Below, piece after piece: positions 56,888 through 63,802 of a stretch of 64,000 bases of DNA. The stretch comes from Strigops habroptila (lineage: Eukaryota > Chordata > Aves > Psittaciformes > Psittacidae), in assembly GCF_004027225.2 (NCBI RefSeq), contig NC_044282.2:75154287-75218286 (forward strand), written 5' to 3'. The first letter of the stretch is position 1. Every line of letters begins with the position of its first letter. The position numbers and the translations under genes are program-made. Under the pieces are notes generated by a model. The model did no database searches. It was given only the letters and a program-made list of their open reading frames with translations, and was not told where the DNA came from.

Positions 56888-57009
56888 CTATTGATGCTTG
56901 GGAGGATGCGTGGTGGGCTTTGGAAACAAGGCAGAGGCACGAAATAAGATCACGGGAGCCAACAGAGGTCCCACAGCAGGCAGCTCCCACCTCCCATTAC
57001 CAGGCCTGG
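56888..57009 (-). other. Candidate terminal region of the vinculin-like gene
   Basis: On the minus strand the donor AAA|GTAAGT at 57077 ends exon 6 in phase 0. Downstream an acceptor-like TCTTACAG precedes 57009; in phase 0 this gives about 19 codons to a stop, and in another phase about 40 codons to a TAG at 56888-56890. A second AG near 56920 gives a short Pro-rich end. None is clearly the vinculin C-terminal peptide, so the end of the protein is left open. Confidence 0.3.
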
Positions 57010-57077
57010 CTGTAAGAGCTCCCCACAGCACGGACTCACCTTGCAAAGCCCATCGGATGCCATCAGCATGGACTTAC

Positions 57078-60000
57078 TTTGATACACGCTGCCTCAGCTG
57101 CCTTCAGGATGTGCAAAACCGCTTGAACAAGGTTCTGTGTGTTGCTCACGAGCAGCTCGGAGGAGGATTTGCTCTCTGCAGTGACTGCTTTTACCCTTCA
57201 GAGACATTTTAAAGCACGGAGGAACATTGGTGTGTTCCCCCCATGTGGTCAGTTACTCCTACTCCAAACCCAGAAGGTCGTTCCCTGCACTATCAGAGCA
57301 GGTTTCCAGGGAAAACAGGGGAGGAAGGGGCTGTCTGCAGCAACAGGAAGAGGATCCCTAACGGCTACACCCAGATCCCTCAAGGACTTCTGGAGACCCC
57401 CAAGCACATCTCTTTGGGAAGGGTCCCACCAGCCCTGGAGAGGTGTCTCACCTGGCCACGATGCCGAGCTGGCTGCTGATGGTGTGGGCCTGCTCGGTGG
57501 CACAGAGCAGCTCCATGGAGCACCTCCTGTCCAGGCAGAGCTTGGCCACGGCACGGCCAAAGGTGACAAACTCCTGCCCATCCAAAGCCATCTGCCTCGC
57601 ACAGGCAACGAGCTGGTCCTTGCTCTGAAACAGGAGAGAAGTAAGTGTGTTTGGGGGGAAGGATCAAAAAAACCCCATTTCCTGACAGGGAGGGGTTACA
57701 GAACCCCAGCCTGGTTTGGGTTGAAGGGACCTTAAAGCTCATCCAGCTCCAAGCCCCTGCCACGGGCAGGGACACCTTCCACTAGAGCAGGTTGCTCCAA
57801 GCCCCTGTGTCCAACCTGGCCTTGAACACTGCCAGGGATGGGGCAGCCACAGCTTCTCTGGGAAAAGTCTGTGCCAGCGCCTCAGCACCCTCACAGGGAA
57901 GAGCTTCTGCCTCAGAGCTCATCTCAGTCTCCCCTCTGGCAGGTTAAAGCCATTCCCCTTGCCCTGTCCCTACAGGCCCTTGTCCAAAGCCCCTGTCCAG
58001 GTTTCCTGGAGCCCCTTCAGGCACTGGAGCTGCTCCAAGGTCTCCCCTTCAGGAGCCTTCTCTTCTCCAGGCTGCCCCAGCCCAGCTCTCTCAGCCTGGC
58101 TCCAGAGCAGAGCCGCTCCAGGGAGCCCAGGTGTGTTCTCAGACAGGGAAAGGGCTGGATGCCAAGCTCACATCTGATCAGAGGAAGTAATTTCTTGTGC
58201 TTTGCATAAATAGAGCTGGTGCCACCCTCACAGGAGTAGGGTAAGGTGGGGAAATGGGGGTTCAGCAGGCACTGGGCAGCCCCATCACTGGCTCTGATCA
58301 TGCTCCTGGGGGGGAAAATGTGCTGGGGTGAAGGGGGGAAATGCTCCTTACTGTGATGGGGCCCTTCTTCTTCAGGAACTGAGTCATGTGGCGCATCCTT
58401 GTTGCCATGTCCTTGGTGACCTGGGACATCTTGCTGGGGCCACCCTGCCCCGTGTCACTGCTTTCTCTCTCGTGCTTCACAGGGCTGCTGGCAGGGGAGG
58501 TGCTGGGAGGGCCTTTGCGGTGCTGTCGAGACAATACCTGAATGGATTCCAAGTCTGGGGTGTGCAGATGCTGAGAAATCTCTGCCTGTGTGCTTCTGAA
58601 GCAGGTTTTGGTGAGGGATGGAGATGGGAGAGCTGCCACCACCTCGCTGGTCTGCTCTGCCTTCCCAACCCGCCCTTAACCCACAGTGGGGCTATCAAAT
58701 CCATGTGCCCCATGCCATGGTCTCCTGGAGCTATCATCTCCCTGTGCCAGCATCTCCTCCTTGGAGGAGCTGTCTCCAAGCAGTGTTCTGAACCACTCTG
58801 CTGAGTGATGTGGGTTGGGCACTGAGGCCTGTGCCAGCTCCTGCCAGCCGGCACTGGCTGCTGTGGGACTGGCATTGCTGGTGCCCCACAGGGTGCTGGC
58901 AGGGAGGGGAGCAGGCAGGGACAGGCAGTGTAGTGCAGCCCCTGCTCCTCAGAACAGCCTTTTGGAGATGGGTTATTCATGCAGGAGTGCCCTCCGATCA
59001 GATCAGATCTCCAGGACTCGGGCAGCCAGGAACCTGATCTGACTTTGCAGGTGACCACAGGGTCAGACCATGGGTCCCTGCCAGCATCACGTACCTCAGC
59101 ACTCCCTGGTGTGAGTGTCAGGACCGGCTGCCAGCCCCGACATCACCCCGCAGTGAGAGCTGGTGGGGAAAAAGCTACTGTACCCTTGCAGGTGCCTCCC
59201 TGGCAGCTCCTCTTGCTCGTCCGCTCCTGCTGGCGCAGGTCTCTGCTGACCTGGCGTGGCTCAGAGCATCCAGCTCCAGGGCTGGGAAGAGCTTGGCTGT
59301 GCTGTGGTGGTGTCCTGGGAAGCTCTGGTCCCCTGTGTTCTGCAGGCAGTGTTTGATGAGCTCCACAACATCCCCACCGATGCCCTGGACAGCCTGAAGC
59401 TGTGTGACGAGGTAGTGTGCCTCTGCAGACCAGTACCAGACAGTGCTCTCTAGGTGGAGATGCTCTTCACCCTGGTGGCTCTGGAGGAGCTGCCTGGCGC
59501 TGCCCACTGCGTTGGACGTGAGGAGCAGGAGGTGGTCTGCGATGGAGAGCAGGTTTGCCTCCAGCTCCGGTTGAGTGTTGGCCTCCAGAACATGGTGGAG
59601 GGTGGTTTTGACCCACTGGACATTTGCCATCAGCCTCTTTGCCTTCTCTTCAAAGGCCTCTTTGCTCCTTTCCCTCTCCTCTTGGGAGAGGGGGGTCAGG
59701 GCAGGTCCAACCACGTCTCTGATGACCCGCAAGTGTTCGGCATTGACCCTCTCCAGGTGGAGCAGCAGCGCCTTGGCCCGGAGGGCCAGGTCCCTCTGCA
59801 GGAGCTCAAAGCGAACGCACAGGCTGGCAGCAGGCAGCGGGGAGAGCAGGAGGGTGCTGGAGGCCTCCAGCAGCGCTTCCATCAGCACCTGCATCTCCTC
59901 CCTGAGCACTAGGATCTCAGTGTGCCCATGGCCCTCAGGGCAGGACGAGGAGGAGAGCCGGGCAGCCTCCTGCAGCCTCAGGGAGCGCTCGGACAGCGCA

Positions 60001-63000
60001 GCCAGGAGGCTCTGAGGGCAGAGCTTGTTCCTCACAGCACTCCTCAGCTCCCTCAGGAGCAGCACATCCCTGCCTAGGAACCGATCCACAGCGCCCAGCA
60101 GGACGTGTGCGCTGACAGCCCACTGCACACAGAGCAGCTCCAGGCTGGCCCTGCCCACCACGCTGGAGCCCTCGAAGGATGCTGCCTTCCCAAGCAGTGC
60201 TCTGGTGATCATCCGAGCGCGTGAAAACTTGGCTTGGACCTGCAGAAAGCTCCCCCAGCCATCAGGGGAGAGGGGGCTTCCCTCCCTGCAGGTGATACTC
60301 ACAATGTCTGCTGCGAACTGAACTGCTCCTGCTAATCCCATCATGGTCTCCTCCAAAGCCTGTTTGCCCCTCAGGAAGTCAGCAGACAAGATAAAGACAA
60401 ACACTTGCTGAGACAGACTGTACCAGGAGCCTGCCACGGCTGCCAGGCACTCCTTGGTGTGGCAGATCCTTTCTGAGAGCGTGAGGGCCACGTGGAAAAG
60501 CTCACTTGGGCAAGGACGCTGCTCTGGGGCCGTGTCCCTGGCCAGGCTGATCACACGTGGTGTCAGAAGCTCAATCTCCTGGTACTGCCCCAGTGTCTCC
60601 CTGTGCGGACACTCAGCAAGGGACAGCGCTTCCTTTGCTGCATCCACGCAGCCTCTGGAGAGCTCGAGCAAGGCAGAGCAAGCAGCACTGAGCAATGGCG
60701 TGTCATGGGCTCCTCTTGCTGCCAGCAGAGCTGTGATCACAGGGTGTGCGCCTCCTTTCCTTGGGTGCGAGCTACCTGCTTGTGAAGATGGATGGCTTAA
60801 GGTGTCTTCTTGCAACACAGCCTCATCCATTATGGTTTTTAGCCCAGCACACGATGGGCTGAGCTCAACCCCCTTCGCAAAAGGAGCGCCTCGCACTTGT
60901 TCCCGCAGCGGGCTGAGGATGTCTGGGTGGTTGGAGCCATCCAGCCCGTCCTGGACACGCTGAGCAGCGTCCATCAGGCAGCTCGCTGCCTTGGAAAAGA
61001 CATCCCTGGTTTGGGGGCAGGAGGGTCTCTCTGCACAAAGGGCTGCAGCTGCTTTCAGCTCGAGGATGGAGCTGGCCAGTTGCTCGACCCAAACCAGCAA
61101 ACCATTCCTGAAGATGGGGTCTGTGGCTCTGTCCACGTACCTGGTGGTGGCTTCCACCACCCACCGAGCCCAGCTGCTGAGGTGGGTTGTGTGCCAAGAG
61201 AACCTCTCGGGGTCCTGGCTCCCCAGGGCCCTTTCACACCATTCCCGCTCCTTGGCCATCTCCCGGATGGACAGCTTAAGGAATTCACGAGTGCTGACTG
61301 TGTCCTCAAAGCACCACAGCAGGCTCTGTGCTGCGCCAGCCCACGCGTGGCACAGGGACTGCAGCTGCTCAGCAGCACTCGCCTGGGCTCCATCCCTGCT
61401 CACTGCAGCGAGCAGAGGAGGGACGCTGGCGAGGAGCCTCCTCAGGTGCTGCACCAGCTCCCTGATGTCTCCAGCAGTGTGGGGCTTGGGGCACCGAGCC
61501 AGGACAAAGTCTGCCGCTCGGAGCATCCCTTGGGCATGTGTGAAGAAGGCAGCAATGAGGGGCTGCAGCTGCTTTAAAAACCCTCCTTGTCCTGCAGGAA
61601 AACACCCCGGAGCAGCAAGGCTGAGGGCACCTTCAACCAACAGCCTCAGGGGCTCCTTACCCCCAGGGAAGGTGTCGAGGACCTGGCACAGTGTCGCTGC
61701 GAGCACCACCTGGTCGAGGTCCTGCACCTCCTGCCTCATGGAATGACATTCCCCCTCCAGCCCTGGGCCCCTCTCCTGCTGCCCTGCGAGGCTGCAGATG
61801 CTCTTCCGCAGCCGTAGCAGAACCCAGCAACGTCTGACCAGGTCCAGCCTTTGATGTGGCCTGGATGCCTCTGCCAGGAGCATGCAGTGGAAAACCACCG
61901 CTCCCACGTGAGCACTGAAGGTGCTGTCAGAGAGGAGCAGGGGGTCTGGGGGGGACAGGAGAGCCAGCAGCCTGCTCACGTGCTCGGAGAAGGTCCCGCT
62001 TCTGTCCCATGGCTCCTTGCTCCCTGTGTCATCAGTGAGCAGGGACATGAGCTCCTTGATGGTCCTCTCCACCAGCTGGAAAGCATCATCCTTGGAGCAG
62101 CTGACTTGCTGATCCCGGGAGTGTTTAAGATGCTTGTCCTTGGCTGCGTGCAGCAGAGGGACACGCTGCTGGAGGAGCTGCAAGGTTTGAGCCAAGCTCT
62201 TCTGTCGAGGACAGTCCCCCAGTTCCTCGAGGCGCTTTGCTGTCAGGCTGCTCAGCAGGAGCAGGGCCTCGGAGAAGGCCTGGAAAGCAGCCAGCACTGC
62301 TGGCGTGTCCGCTGCGGCCTGCAGCACACTCAGGCACTCCAGAAGCCAGCTGGCAGCCTGCAGGATCCTCCTCACCCCGGCAGCATCTTCCATCTGAAGG
62401 ATCTAACCAGGAAATGAACAGCAGAAAAACTGGTCAGAGAGGACAAGGCTCAAGAGTCCCTTGTGTGGCCAAGGAGGCACCACAGCCCCGGAAGGGAAGG
62501 GAAGGGACCTGTTTTGCTCAGTGGATCTCCCCCAGAGAGGAAACCACCATTGACCAGCTAGAGCTTCCCCAAGCCCCAGCGCTGTCCTGGTGGAGGGCAG
62601 CTCTTGTCGTAGAATCCCAGCCTGGTTTGGGTTGAAGGGAGCTTAAAGCTCATCCAGCTCCAACCCCCTGCCACGGGCAGGGACACCTTCCACTAGAGCA
62701 GGTTGCTCCAAGCCCCTGTGTCCAACCTGGCCTTGAACACTGCCAGGGATGGGGCAGCCACAGCTTCTCTGGGAAAAGTCTGTGCCAGCGCCTCAGCACC
62801 CTCCCAGGGAAGAGCTTCTGCCTCAGAGCTCATCTCAATCTCCCCTCTGGCAGGTTAAAGCCATTCCCCTTGGCCTGTCCCTACAGGCCCTTGTCCAAAG
62901 CCCCTCTCCAGGTTTCCTGGAGCCCCTTTAGGCACTGGAGCTGCTCTAAGGTGTCCCCTTCAGGAGCCTTCTCTTCTCCAGGCTGCCCCAGCCCAGCTCT

Positions 63001-63802
63001 CTCAGCCTGGCTCCAGAGCAGAGCTGCTCCAGCCCTCGCAGCAGCTCCGGGGCCTCCTCTGGCCTCGCTCCAGCAGCTCCACGTCCCTCCTGTGCTGTGT
63101 TCCCCTCCATGTCCTGTCCTGACCCCCCTGCTCGCTCCAGCCCCATCCCCTCTCTGTTACCTTCGCTGTCTCCATTAGGACCCGCTGCGCGGCCGCTGCC
63201 AGCTCCTCCCTGGGGCCGGGGCTGTCGGGCTGCCCCCGGAGCCTGCGGGCTGCCACCAGCACCTTGCTCCCCGCCAGCACCAGGGACTGGGCCGCAGGAC
63301 ACATCTCCTCCTCCAGCACCTCGTCGCTGGACTCCTCAGCCAACCTGGAGCAGAATCCACTGGGCTCAGCTCTTTGCCATCCCGTGCGCACCTCGCCACG
63401 TCCCTCCCAGGCACACATCCCTGCTCCGTCCCATCTCCCCTTTCCCATTCCTGATTATATTCCCCCCATCACATTCCCCATCCCTCCCTCCTCACACTCC
63501 CACCTCTCCAGTGGGATGCAGGCAGGCTCCCTGCCCGTTTCTTTGCCATCCCTTCCTCCTCCTTCCCAGCCCCAAATCTACCCGGGAGGCACCCCCCAAA
63601 CCCACCTTCTTGCAACAGCAGCGAGTTCTTCTGTGGCTTGGGCCAATGTTTCTGCGTTCTCCTCTATATCGGGACAAATCCCATCTTCCCATTCCAGGGC
63701 GAGGATGAGGTGGCAGAGCTGCGCAGCCATGGGGCAGAGGATCCTTTCCATAGCTTTGTTTTCTGTTAGGAGCCCGAGGTCAGAGAAGTAAAACGGCTCC
63801 AT
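57078..63802 (-). CDS. Vinculin/alpha-catenin superfamily protein, giant central exon; C-terminal exon unresolved
   Basis: Likely actin/adhesion-linked helical-bundle protein. Exons on the minus strand: 63802-63606 (start MEPFYFSDLG), 63344-63161, 62393-59251, 58595-58352, 57624-57452, 57195-57078. Phases join in frame to 1,353 residues plus a terminal exon. The N-terminus aligns with vinculin: ILCPMAAQLCHL (vinculin ILEPVAQQISHL) and EDAAGVRRILQAASWLLECL (vinculin DEAEVRKIIRVCKGILEYL). The C-terminal part has MRHMTQFLKKKGPI, like alpha-catenin MMEMTDFTRGKGPL, then HTISSQLGIVARVKA and NTQNLVQAVLHILKAAEAA, like vinculin PTISTQLKILSTVKA and NAQNLMQSVKETVREAEAA. The middle exon (about 1,048 residues) is Leu/Ala-rich and helical, with weaker similarity. 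The large open frame starts with ATG at 62393, but that Met is internal because the exon has a clear acceptor and in-phase upstream exons. Alternatives at the exon 3/4 join are donor 59184 with acceptor 58537. Longer than vinculin (about 1,066). Not a known paralogue I can name. Confidence 0.85.
57694..58122 (-). mobile_element. CR1 LINE fragment (family A1), intron of the vinculin-like gene
   Basis: In the same orientation as the host gene; CAGAACCCCAGCCTGGTTTG to GCTCCAGAGCAGAGCCGCTC. It fills most of the intron between exons 58352-58595 and 57452-57624. Confidence 0.88.
62609..63110 (-). mobile_element. CR1 LINE (family A1), intron 2 of the vinculin-like gene
   Basis: About 500 bases, GTAGAATCCCAGCCTGGTTT to CCAGCAGCTCCACGTCCCTC, taking up about two thirds of the 767-base intron before the giant exon. 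Confidence 0.88.

What the first reader, a model, noticed from the sequence alone, without database searches (positions are those of the whole stretch)
56888..63802. Unfamiliar vinculin/alpha-catenin paralogue with one 3.1-kb central exon
Six in-phase exons give at least 1,353 residues with clear vinculin-like ends (start of head domain; KKKGPI and the tail helices). Vertebrate vinculin and alpha-catenins are cut into many small exons, whereas here about 1,048 residues sit in one exon flanked by small exons. That pattern suggests loss of many introns, for example by recombination with a cDNA, within an old paralogue. I know no human gene of this structure at this locus, so it may be a lineage-restricted or mammal-lost family member, longer than vinculin itself.
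Basis: partly seen in the sequence, partly recalled or inferred. Interest (0 to 1): 0.82.

Follow-up and report, generated by a model that had tools for sequence, protein, structure and literature searches.

The report
Extra long-rod vinculin-like bird gene
This bird-like genome carries an extra, very divergent relative of vinculin and alpha-catenin, the proteins that tie cell junctions to the actin skeleton, with a long added helical stretch; it looks like a real gene, but whether other species have it, or where it is expressed, could not be checked here.

Summary
On the minus strand, six in-phase exons (63802-57078) plus a doubtful seventh (56917-56888) encode about 1,379 residues. One exon of 3,219 nt (62402-59184) carries 1,073 of them. 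Pfam Vinculin matches the spliced protein at 3.6e-62. The same genome has VCL, CTNNA1, two further alpha-catenin-like places and CTNNAL1 elsewhere; the window gene is a sixth place. It is not CTNNAL1. Its tail is closest to sponge VIN1 and vertebrate vinculin. It has vinculin D1, D3-D4 and an actin-binding tail that keeps two key actin contacts but lacks the tryptophan-bearing C-terminal extension. VCL's D2 is absent. About 640 residues between D4 and tail, largely predicted helical, have no significant sequence match. Its five alignable introns all fall inside VCL exons and inside CTNNA1 exons, which speaks against simple central intron loss from either. Best reading: a deep vinculin-side paralogue acting as an actin-binding adaptor with a lengthened rod. 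Orthologues, transcripts and dN/dS could not be tested; no paper listed by my library searches describes it.

The parts
63606..63802 (-). Coding exon 1 (residues 1-65 plus 2 nt): start of the D1 head
   Evidence: Start codon and donor; protein aligns from residue 15-17 with VCL 6 and CTNNA1 24
63161..63344 (-). Coding exon 2 (to residue 127): rest of the first D1 bundle
   Evidence: Splice sites and phase; weak Vinculin match on its own, E 0.054
59184..62402 (-). Coding exon 3, 3,219 nt, residues 128-1200, one open frame
   Evidence: no second copy above chance level in the genome
60942..62402 (-). Part of exon 3 homologous to second D1 bundle, D3 and D4 (residues 128-614); no D2 counterpart
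   Evidence: VCL 6-271 then 506-835; CTNNA1 24-622 contiguous; PDB matches
59184..60941 (-). Part of exon 3 without significant sequence match (residues 615-1200), predicted helical
   Evidence: Residues 662-1200 searched: best PDB hit E 0.81, best Pfam hit below cut-off; helical model, mean pLDDT 45.5; amphipathic signal reached by 0 of 200 shuffles for residues 641-1200
59367..59789 (-). Candidate four-helix bundle (residues 999-1139), the only part modelled with some confidence
58352..58570 (-). Coding exon 4 (start uncertain): linker and first tail helix (MTQFLKKKGPIT)
   Evidence: Acceptor list; tail match from residue 1253
57452..57624 (-). Coding exon 5: tail helices; I1328 = VCL I997 = alpha-catenin I792
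57078..57195 (-). Coding exon 6: tail helices; V1332 = VCL V1001 = alpha-catenin V796
57063..57065 (-). Alternative stop codon if exon 6 is not spliced onward (C-terminus IKVSPC)
   Evidence: Sequence; VCL and CTNNA1 have no intron there
56888..56917 (-). Doubtful seventh exon, PTTHPPKHQ and stop
   Evidence: Acceptor and phase only; no homology

Best explanation
[quoted passage not shown] Shown: it encodes a vinculin-type D1 head, D3-D4 and an actin-binding-type tail, with a further stretch of about 640 residues between D4 and the tail. Inferred: that stretch is helical bundles; the protein works as a cytoplasmic scaffold whose head binds a partner helix at a junction or membrane site, whose tail binds F-actin through the conserved I1328 and V1332, and whose added region acts as a longer rod between them. 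Its tail lacks the C-terminal extension that makes alpha-catenin's actin binding force-activated, so I expect actin binding that does not need force to switch it on.
For: Pfam Vinculin 3.6e-62. PDB, whole protein: vinculin chains up to 124.7 bits, sponge VIN1 120.3, CTNNA1 up to 96.6; tail alone: VIN1 68.6, vinculin chains 44-58, CTNNA1 chains 40-44. Colinear D1, D3-D4 and tail without D2. I997/V1001 kept and the extension missing (contacts read in passages of PMC7588232 and PMC10721916). Quartet tree puts it with VCL against CTNNA1+CTNNAL1, ultrafast bootstrap 100 on the concatenate and 96, 94, 99 on the three blocks. The other family loci lie at separate places of the same genome. Frame intact and amphipathic, also in the unmatched part. 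A D3-D4 profile scores the unmatched part 12.4 bits against 0.7 reversed and at most 7.3 in 200 block shuffles.
Against: No orthologue, transcript or selection test was possible. Outside the tail, identity is only 19-22% and no higher to VCL than to CTNNA1. Structure models of the unmatched part are poor (mean pLDDT 45.5 and 43.5). In direct comparison it is not clearly a repeat of D3-D4: 6 of 300 block shuffles reached the score. Several actin-contact residues are not conserved: VCL N980, Q983, R987 and R1049, alpha-catenin L785, V838 and K845; VCL M1005 and R1008 fall in a gap. The C-terminus is uncertain, so the missing extension depends on one of two read models.
Confidence: 0.66

Rival explanations
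1. An old VCL or alpha-catenin duplicate that lost its central introns by recombination with a cDNA.
For: One 3,219-nt exon covers a stretch that is split into many exons in VCL of the same genome.
Against: The five alignable introns, including those that flank the region, fall inside VCL exons and inside CTNNA1 exons, although CTNNA1 730/2 and CTNNAL1 605/2 coincide exactly. Weakening this: the exon 3/4 intron cannot be aligned, the CTNNAL1 set is incomplete, and VCL itself shares no exact intron with CTNNA1 or CTNNAL1 among those determined (VCL 1018/0 and CTNNA1 811/0 are five residues apart in a loop and may be the same).
Confidence: 0.15
2. An ancient intronless retrocopy of a vinculin-like gene that later gained a few introns of its own.
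For: Giant exon, and private intron positions. Drosophila sry-alpha, another divergent superfamily member, is intronless (PMC3820746, section 21 read).
Against: No parent copy can be seen at this divergence; independent intron gain and loss in an old lineage would look the same.
Confidence: 0.3
3. The bird member of an already glimpsed vertebrate clade: the uncharacterised zebrafish (F1Q8P1) and Xenopus (F7CCD7) proteins that group with Sry-alpha/Spt.
For: Figure S2 legend of PMC3820746 names such proteins; Sry-alpha and Spt are divergent members that bind F-actin.
Against: [quoted passage not shown] No Serendipity-type Pfam family (name recalled) was listed at E<=10, a filtered search. Sequences could not be compared.
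Confidence: 0.25
4. A recently inactivated or mis-assembled gene.
For: Two weak splice sites (exon 3 donor, exon 6 acceptor, judged by eye) and an uncertain last exon.
Against: No stop or frameshift in about 4.1 kb of coding sequence; conserved tail residues; frame-specific signal through the unmatched part.
Confidence: 0.07

Closest known systems
Vinculin (VCL), including sponge VIN1
   Same: D1 head, D3-D4 order and tail; tail is most similar to VIN1 and vinculin; key actin contacts I997 and V1001 conserved
   Different: No D2; about 640 residues before the tail where VCL has about 90; no W1058-type extension; no shared intron; 19-22% identity to VCL outside the tail
Alpha-catenins (CTNNA1 and its paralogues)
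   Same: Contiguous D1-D3-D4 without D2 over CTNNA1 24-622; I792 and V796 conserved
   Different: Lower tail similarity, no W859 extension, its introns fall inside CTNNA1 exons; the locus is separate from CTNNA1 and from two more alpha-catenin-like places
Alpha-catulin (CTNNAL1)
   Same: Same superfamily; Pfam Vinculin match
   Different: Tree and similarity separate it, and CTNNAL1 is present elsewhere in the genome
Drosophila Sry-alpha and Spt
   Same: Divergent superfamily members that bind F-actin; sry-alpha is intronless (PMC3820746, sections 7 and 21 read)
   Different: They align with the middle of vinculin; this protein has head and tail. No direct sequence comparison made

Membership tests
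Vinculin/alpha-catenin superfamily (Pfam PF01044) | Significant match to the family profile above its curated cut-off | tested here: met
   211.3 bits against 38.1
Vinculin/alpha-catenin superfamily (Pfam PF01044) | Head, middle and actin-binding tail in the family order | tested here: met
   Colinear blocks
Vinculin (VCL orthologue) | D2 domain between D1 and D3 | tested here: not met
   VCL 271-506 has no aligned counterpart; the PDB comparison gives only a sub-threshold stretch there, -1.9 to -0.8 bits
Vinculin (VCL orthologue) | Is the VCL locus of this genome | tested here: not met
   VCL is on contig C5
Alpha-catenin | Closer to CTNNA1 than to vinculin, or shares alpha-catenin introns | tested here: not met
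   identity over head and middle is about equal
Alpha-catenin | Binds beta-catenin through its N-terminal region | not testable with these tools
   Needs a binding assay
Alpha-catulin (CTNNAL1) | Groups with CTNNAL1 | tested here: not met
   human CTNNAL1 recalled, supported by 14 matched stretches at C1
F-actin-binding tail of vinculin type | Hydrophobic contacts I997 and V1001 (I792 and V796 in alpha-catenin) | tested here: met
   I1328 and V1332
F-actin-binding tail of vinculin type | C-terminal extension with its tryptophan | tested here: not met
   Absent with either of the two C-termini read; an unseen further exon is not excluded
Sry-alpha/Spt clade | Grouping with those sequences | not tested

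The most novel reading that the evidence does not exclude
A further, undescribed lineage of the vinculin superfamily in vertebrates, older than the vertebrate alpha-catenin duplicates and lost or overlooked in mammals. It has extra vinculin-type bundles in its rod and an extension-less tail that binds actin without force activation: a natural long-rod, force-independent counterpart of vinculin.
Probability: 0.3. Interest if true: 0.7.

Novelty: new variant of a known kind. Interest (0 to 1): 0.52.

Why it matters
Vinculin and alpha-catenins are the textbook force-bearing links from adhesions to actin. [quoted passage not shown] A further intact vertebrate member with a much longer middle and no C-terminal extension would be a natural experiment on two points: what the extension does for force sensing, and how rod length sets load on the linkage. 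It would also mean that a cytoskeletal gene is missing from, or unrecognised in, the mammal-based picture.

Tried and rejected

Literature: searches were aimed at such a gene, and 36 at actin contacts. None of the rows listed describes it, but only the top rows were shown where many papers matched (30 of 3,619, 15 of 300, 12 of 5,307), and the library holds open-licence PMC papers only. Gene databases were not available, so an annotated but unpublished entry is quite possible.
Full report
The finding is real. The gene lies on the minus strand of the window, which the genome tool places at G000:C6:75154287-75218286 in a 1.15-Gb assembly of 89 contigs. The exons read 63802-63606, 63344-63161, 62402-59184, 58570-58352, 57624-57452, 57195-57078 and possibly 56917-56888. 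Joined, they make 1,379 codons and one stop at the end. Exon 3 is 3,219 nt. Its frame has no stop where the other five frames have 12 to 34, and 1,000 first-order resamplings of the same DNA never gave a frame above 467 codons.

The ends of the model are weaker than the middle. Exon 4 has many possible acceptors; I used the phase-0 one at 58570. The exon 3 donor and the exon 6 acceptor are poor by eye. The last exon is doubtful: the donor after residue 1370 is good, but VCL and CTNNA1 have no intron there, and reading on ends the protein four residues later (stop 57065-57063). With either reading the protein stops soon after the last tail helix.

Membership of the superfamily is certain. Pfam Vinculin scores 211.3 bits against a cut-off of 38.1. 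By BLAST the protein aligns with CTNNA1 24-622 in one piece (20.9% identity, 4e-21) and again at 717-842 (28.6%). With VCL it aligns at 6-271, then 506-835, then 924-1051 (23, 20 and 37% identity), so VCL's D2 has no counterpart. Against the PDB the order is vinculin (up to 124.7 bits), sponge VIN1 (120.3), CTNNA1 (up to 96.6). The tail alone matches sponge VIN1 best (68.6 bits), then vinculin chains (44-58), then CTNNA1 chains (40-44). Identities in aligned blocks are 22.1/21.7% (head, VCL/CTNNA1), 19.6/19.8% (middle) and 32.7/29.4% (tail), against 24.2, 26.9 and 35.0% between VCL and CTNNA1.

It is a separate member. The family search over the whole genome listed 54 matches (53 of 62 candidates scored, so a lower bound), which I group into six places. 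One is VCL on C5 near 24.8 Mb (human VCL matches exon by exon, mostly at 62-100%). One is CTNNA1 on C12 (in the exon fragments fetched, seven of eight matched stretches 96-100% identical; the eighth, 63%, runs past a splice site resolved). Two more alpha-catenin-like places lie on C7 near 4.0-4.4 Mb and on C5 near 36 Mb; I take these for CTNNA2 and CTNNA3, but did not test it. One lies on C1 near 62.87 Mb, where recalled human CTNNAL1 gives 14 stretches at 29-92%. The sixth is the window gene. A four-sequence tree of 603 gap-free columns separates it and VCL from CTNNA1 and CTNNAL1 with ultrafast bootstrap 100, and 96, 94 and 99 for head, middle and tail. With four long-branched sequences this shows only that it is not on the alpha-catenin/catulin branch; it does not date the split. 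Neither half of exon 3 has a second copy in the genome above chance level.

Introns. I located VCL introns in this genome after residues 56, 79, 130, 166, 207, 261, 291, 340, 392, 450, 514, 710, 811, 853, 915, 983 and 1018; two junctions were skipped and one called at 677 is unreliable. CTNNA1 introns were read at 100, 286, 766 and 811 and 730. CTNNAL1 introns were read at 167, 207, 237, 294, 361, 390, 474, 554 and 605, others being unresolved. In the alignment, CTNNA1 730 phase 2 and CTNNAL1 605 phase 2 fall on the same column and phase, which shows that introns can stay put in this family. The window gene's five alignable introns fall at VCL-equivalent 59 phase 2, 121 phase 0, 942 phase 0, 999 phase 2 and 1047 phase 0. 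All five lie inside VCL exons and, at CTNNA1-equivalent 77, 137, 737, 794 and 842, inside the CTNNA1 exons matched. For CTNNAL1 none coincides with a determined intron, but two positions lie in unresolved stretches. This speaks against a cDNA having replaced only the middle of a VCL or CTNNA1 duplicate. It fits either a very old lineage with its own intron history or an ancient retrocopy that gained introns. The comparison is weakened because VCL shares no exact intron with CTNNA1 or CTNNAL1 either among those determined (VCL 1018/0 and CTNNA1 811/0 come close), because the exon 3/4 intron has no alignable place, and because the last intron is doubtful.

Function. The tail keeps the paired hydrophobic actin contacts that passages of PMC7588232 give as alpha-catenin I792/V796 and metavinculin I1065/V1069, which are VCL I997 and V1001 by the 68-residue metavinculin offset; here they are I1328 and V1332. 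VCL R976, I1046, E1015 and E1021 are also identical; N980, Q983, R987 and R1049 are not, nor alpha-catenin L785, V838 and K845, and M1005 and R1008 fall in a gap. It lacks the C-terminal extension with its tryptophan. The same paper's introduction says that truncating alpha-catenin's extension gives constitutive strong actin binding regardless of force (passage). From this I infer an actin-binding adaptor with a lengthened rod and force-independent actin binding. Partner, tissue and localisation are unknown.

What is known. [quoted passage not shown] PMC3820746 (sections 7 and 21 and passages) adds Drosophila Sry-alpha/Spt and notes uncharacterised zebrafish and Xenopus proteins in that clade. 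PMC13245172 (passages) mentions a previously described uncharacterised alpha-catenin-like clade. So unexplained superfamily members have been glimpsed before, and this gene could belong with one of them. None of the rows listed in nine aimed library searches describes it. Gene databases could not be consulted.

Surroundings. In the 30 kb beyond the window's right end the longest open frame is a BTB-C2H2 protein, which I recognise from memory as GZF1-like. No TTL-family match is listed on contig C6. If human 2q13 and 20p11 are the counterparts (recalled), the gene sits at a junction of two segments that are apart in human, a plausible place for loss; this is inference.

Noticed in passing
window, 17 places, e.g. 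5076 (+), 14103 (+), 57801 (-), 62712 (-): A 32-base core of a CR1-like repeat (name recalled) occurs 17 times in 64 kb, 15 of them identical and two with one mismatch: a dense, young repeat family, with copies in introns of the vinculin-like gene.
   Followed up: partly
L029:139-1518 (G000:C6:75238139-75239518, -): The longest open frame in the 30 kb beyond the window is a BTB-C2H2 zinc-finger protein, recalled as GZF1-like; in human that gene and MERTK/FBLN7/ZC3H6 are on different chromosomes (recalled), so a rearrangement breakpoint may adjoin the vinculin-like gene.
   Followed up: partly
window 10.9-12.4 kb and 19-45 kb: TMEM87B and ZC3H8, which I recall as neighbours in human, were not noticed between the Mer-like kinase, the fibulin-7-like gene and the CCCH gene; no dedicated search was made.
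   Followed up: no
L018:703-972 (G000:C5:24863703-24863972, +): A metavinculin-type extra VCL exon: an open frame whose end repeats the end of the preceding VCL exon (QSLHREATKWSSK against QLHDEARKWSSK) in the intron after residue 915.
   Followed up: partly
window 58352-57078 (tail exons): The tail scores higher against sponge vinculin VIN1 than against any vertebrate chain listed from the PDB.
   Followed up: partly
L028, G000:C6:75228241-75229112: A long pyrimidine-rich microsatellite that produces artificial open frames.
   Followed up: no
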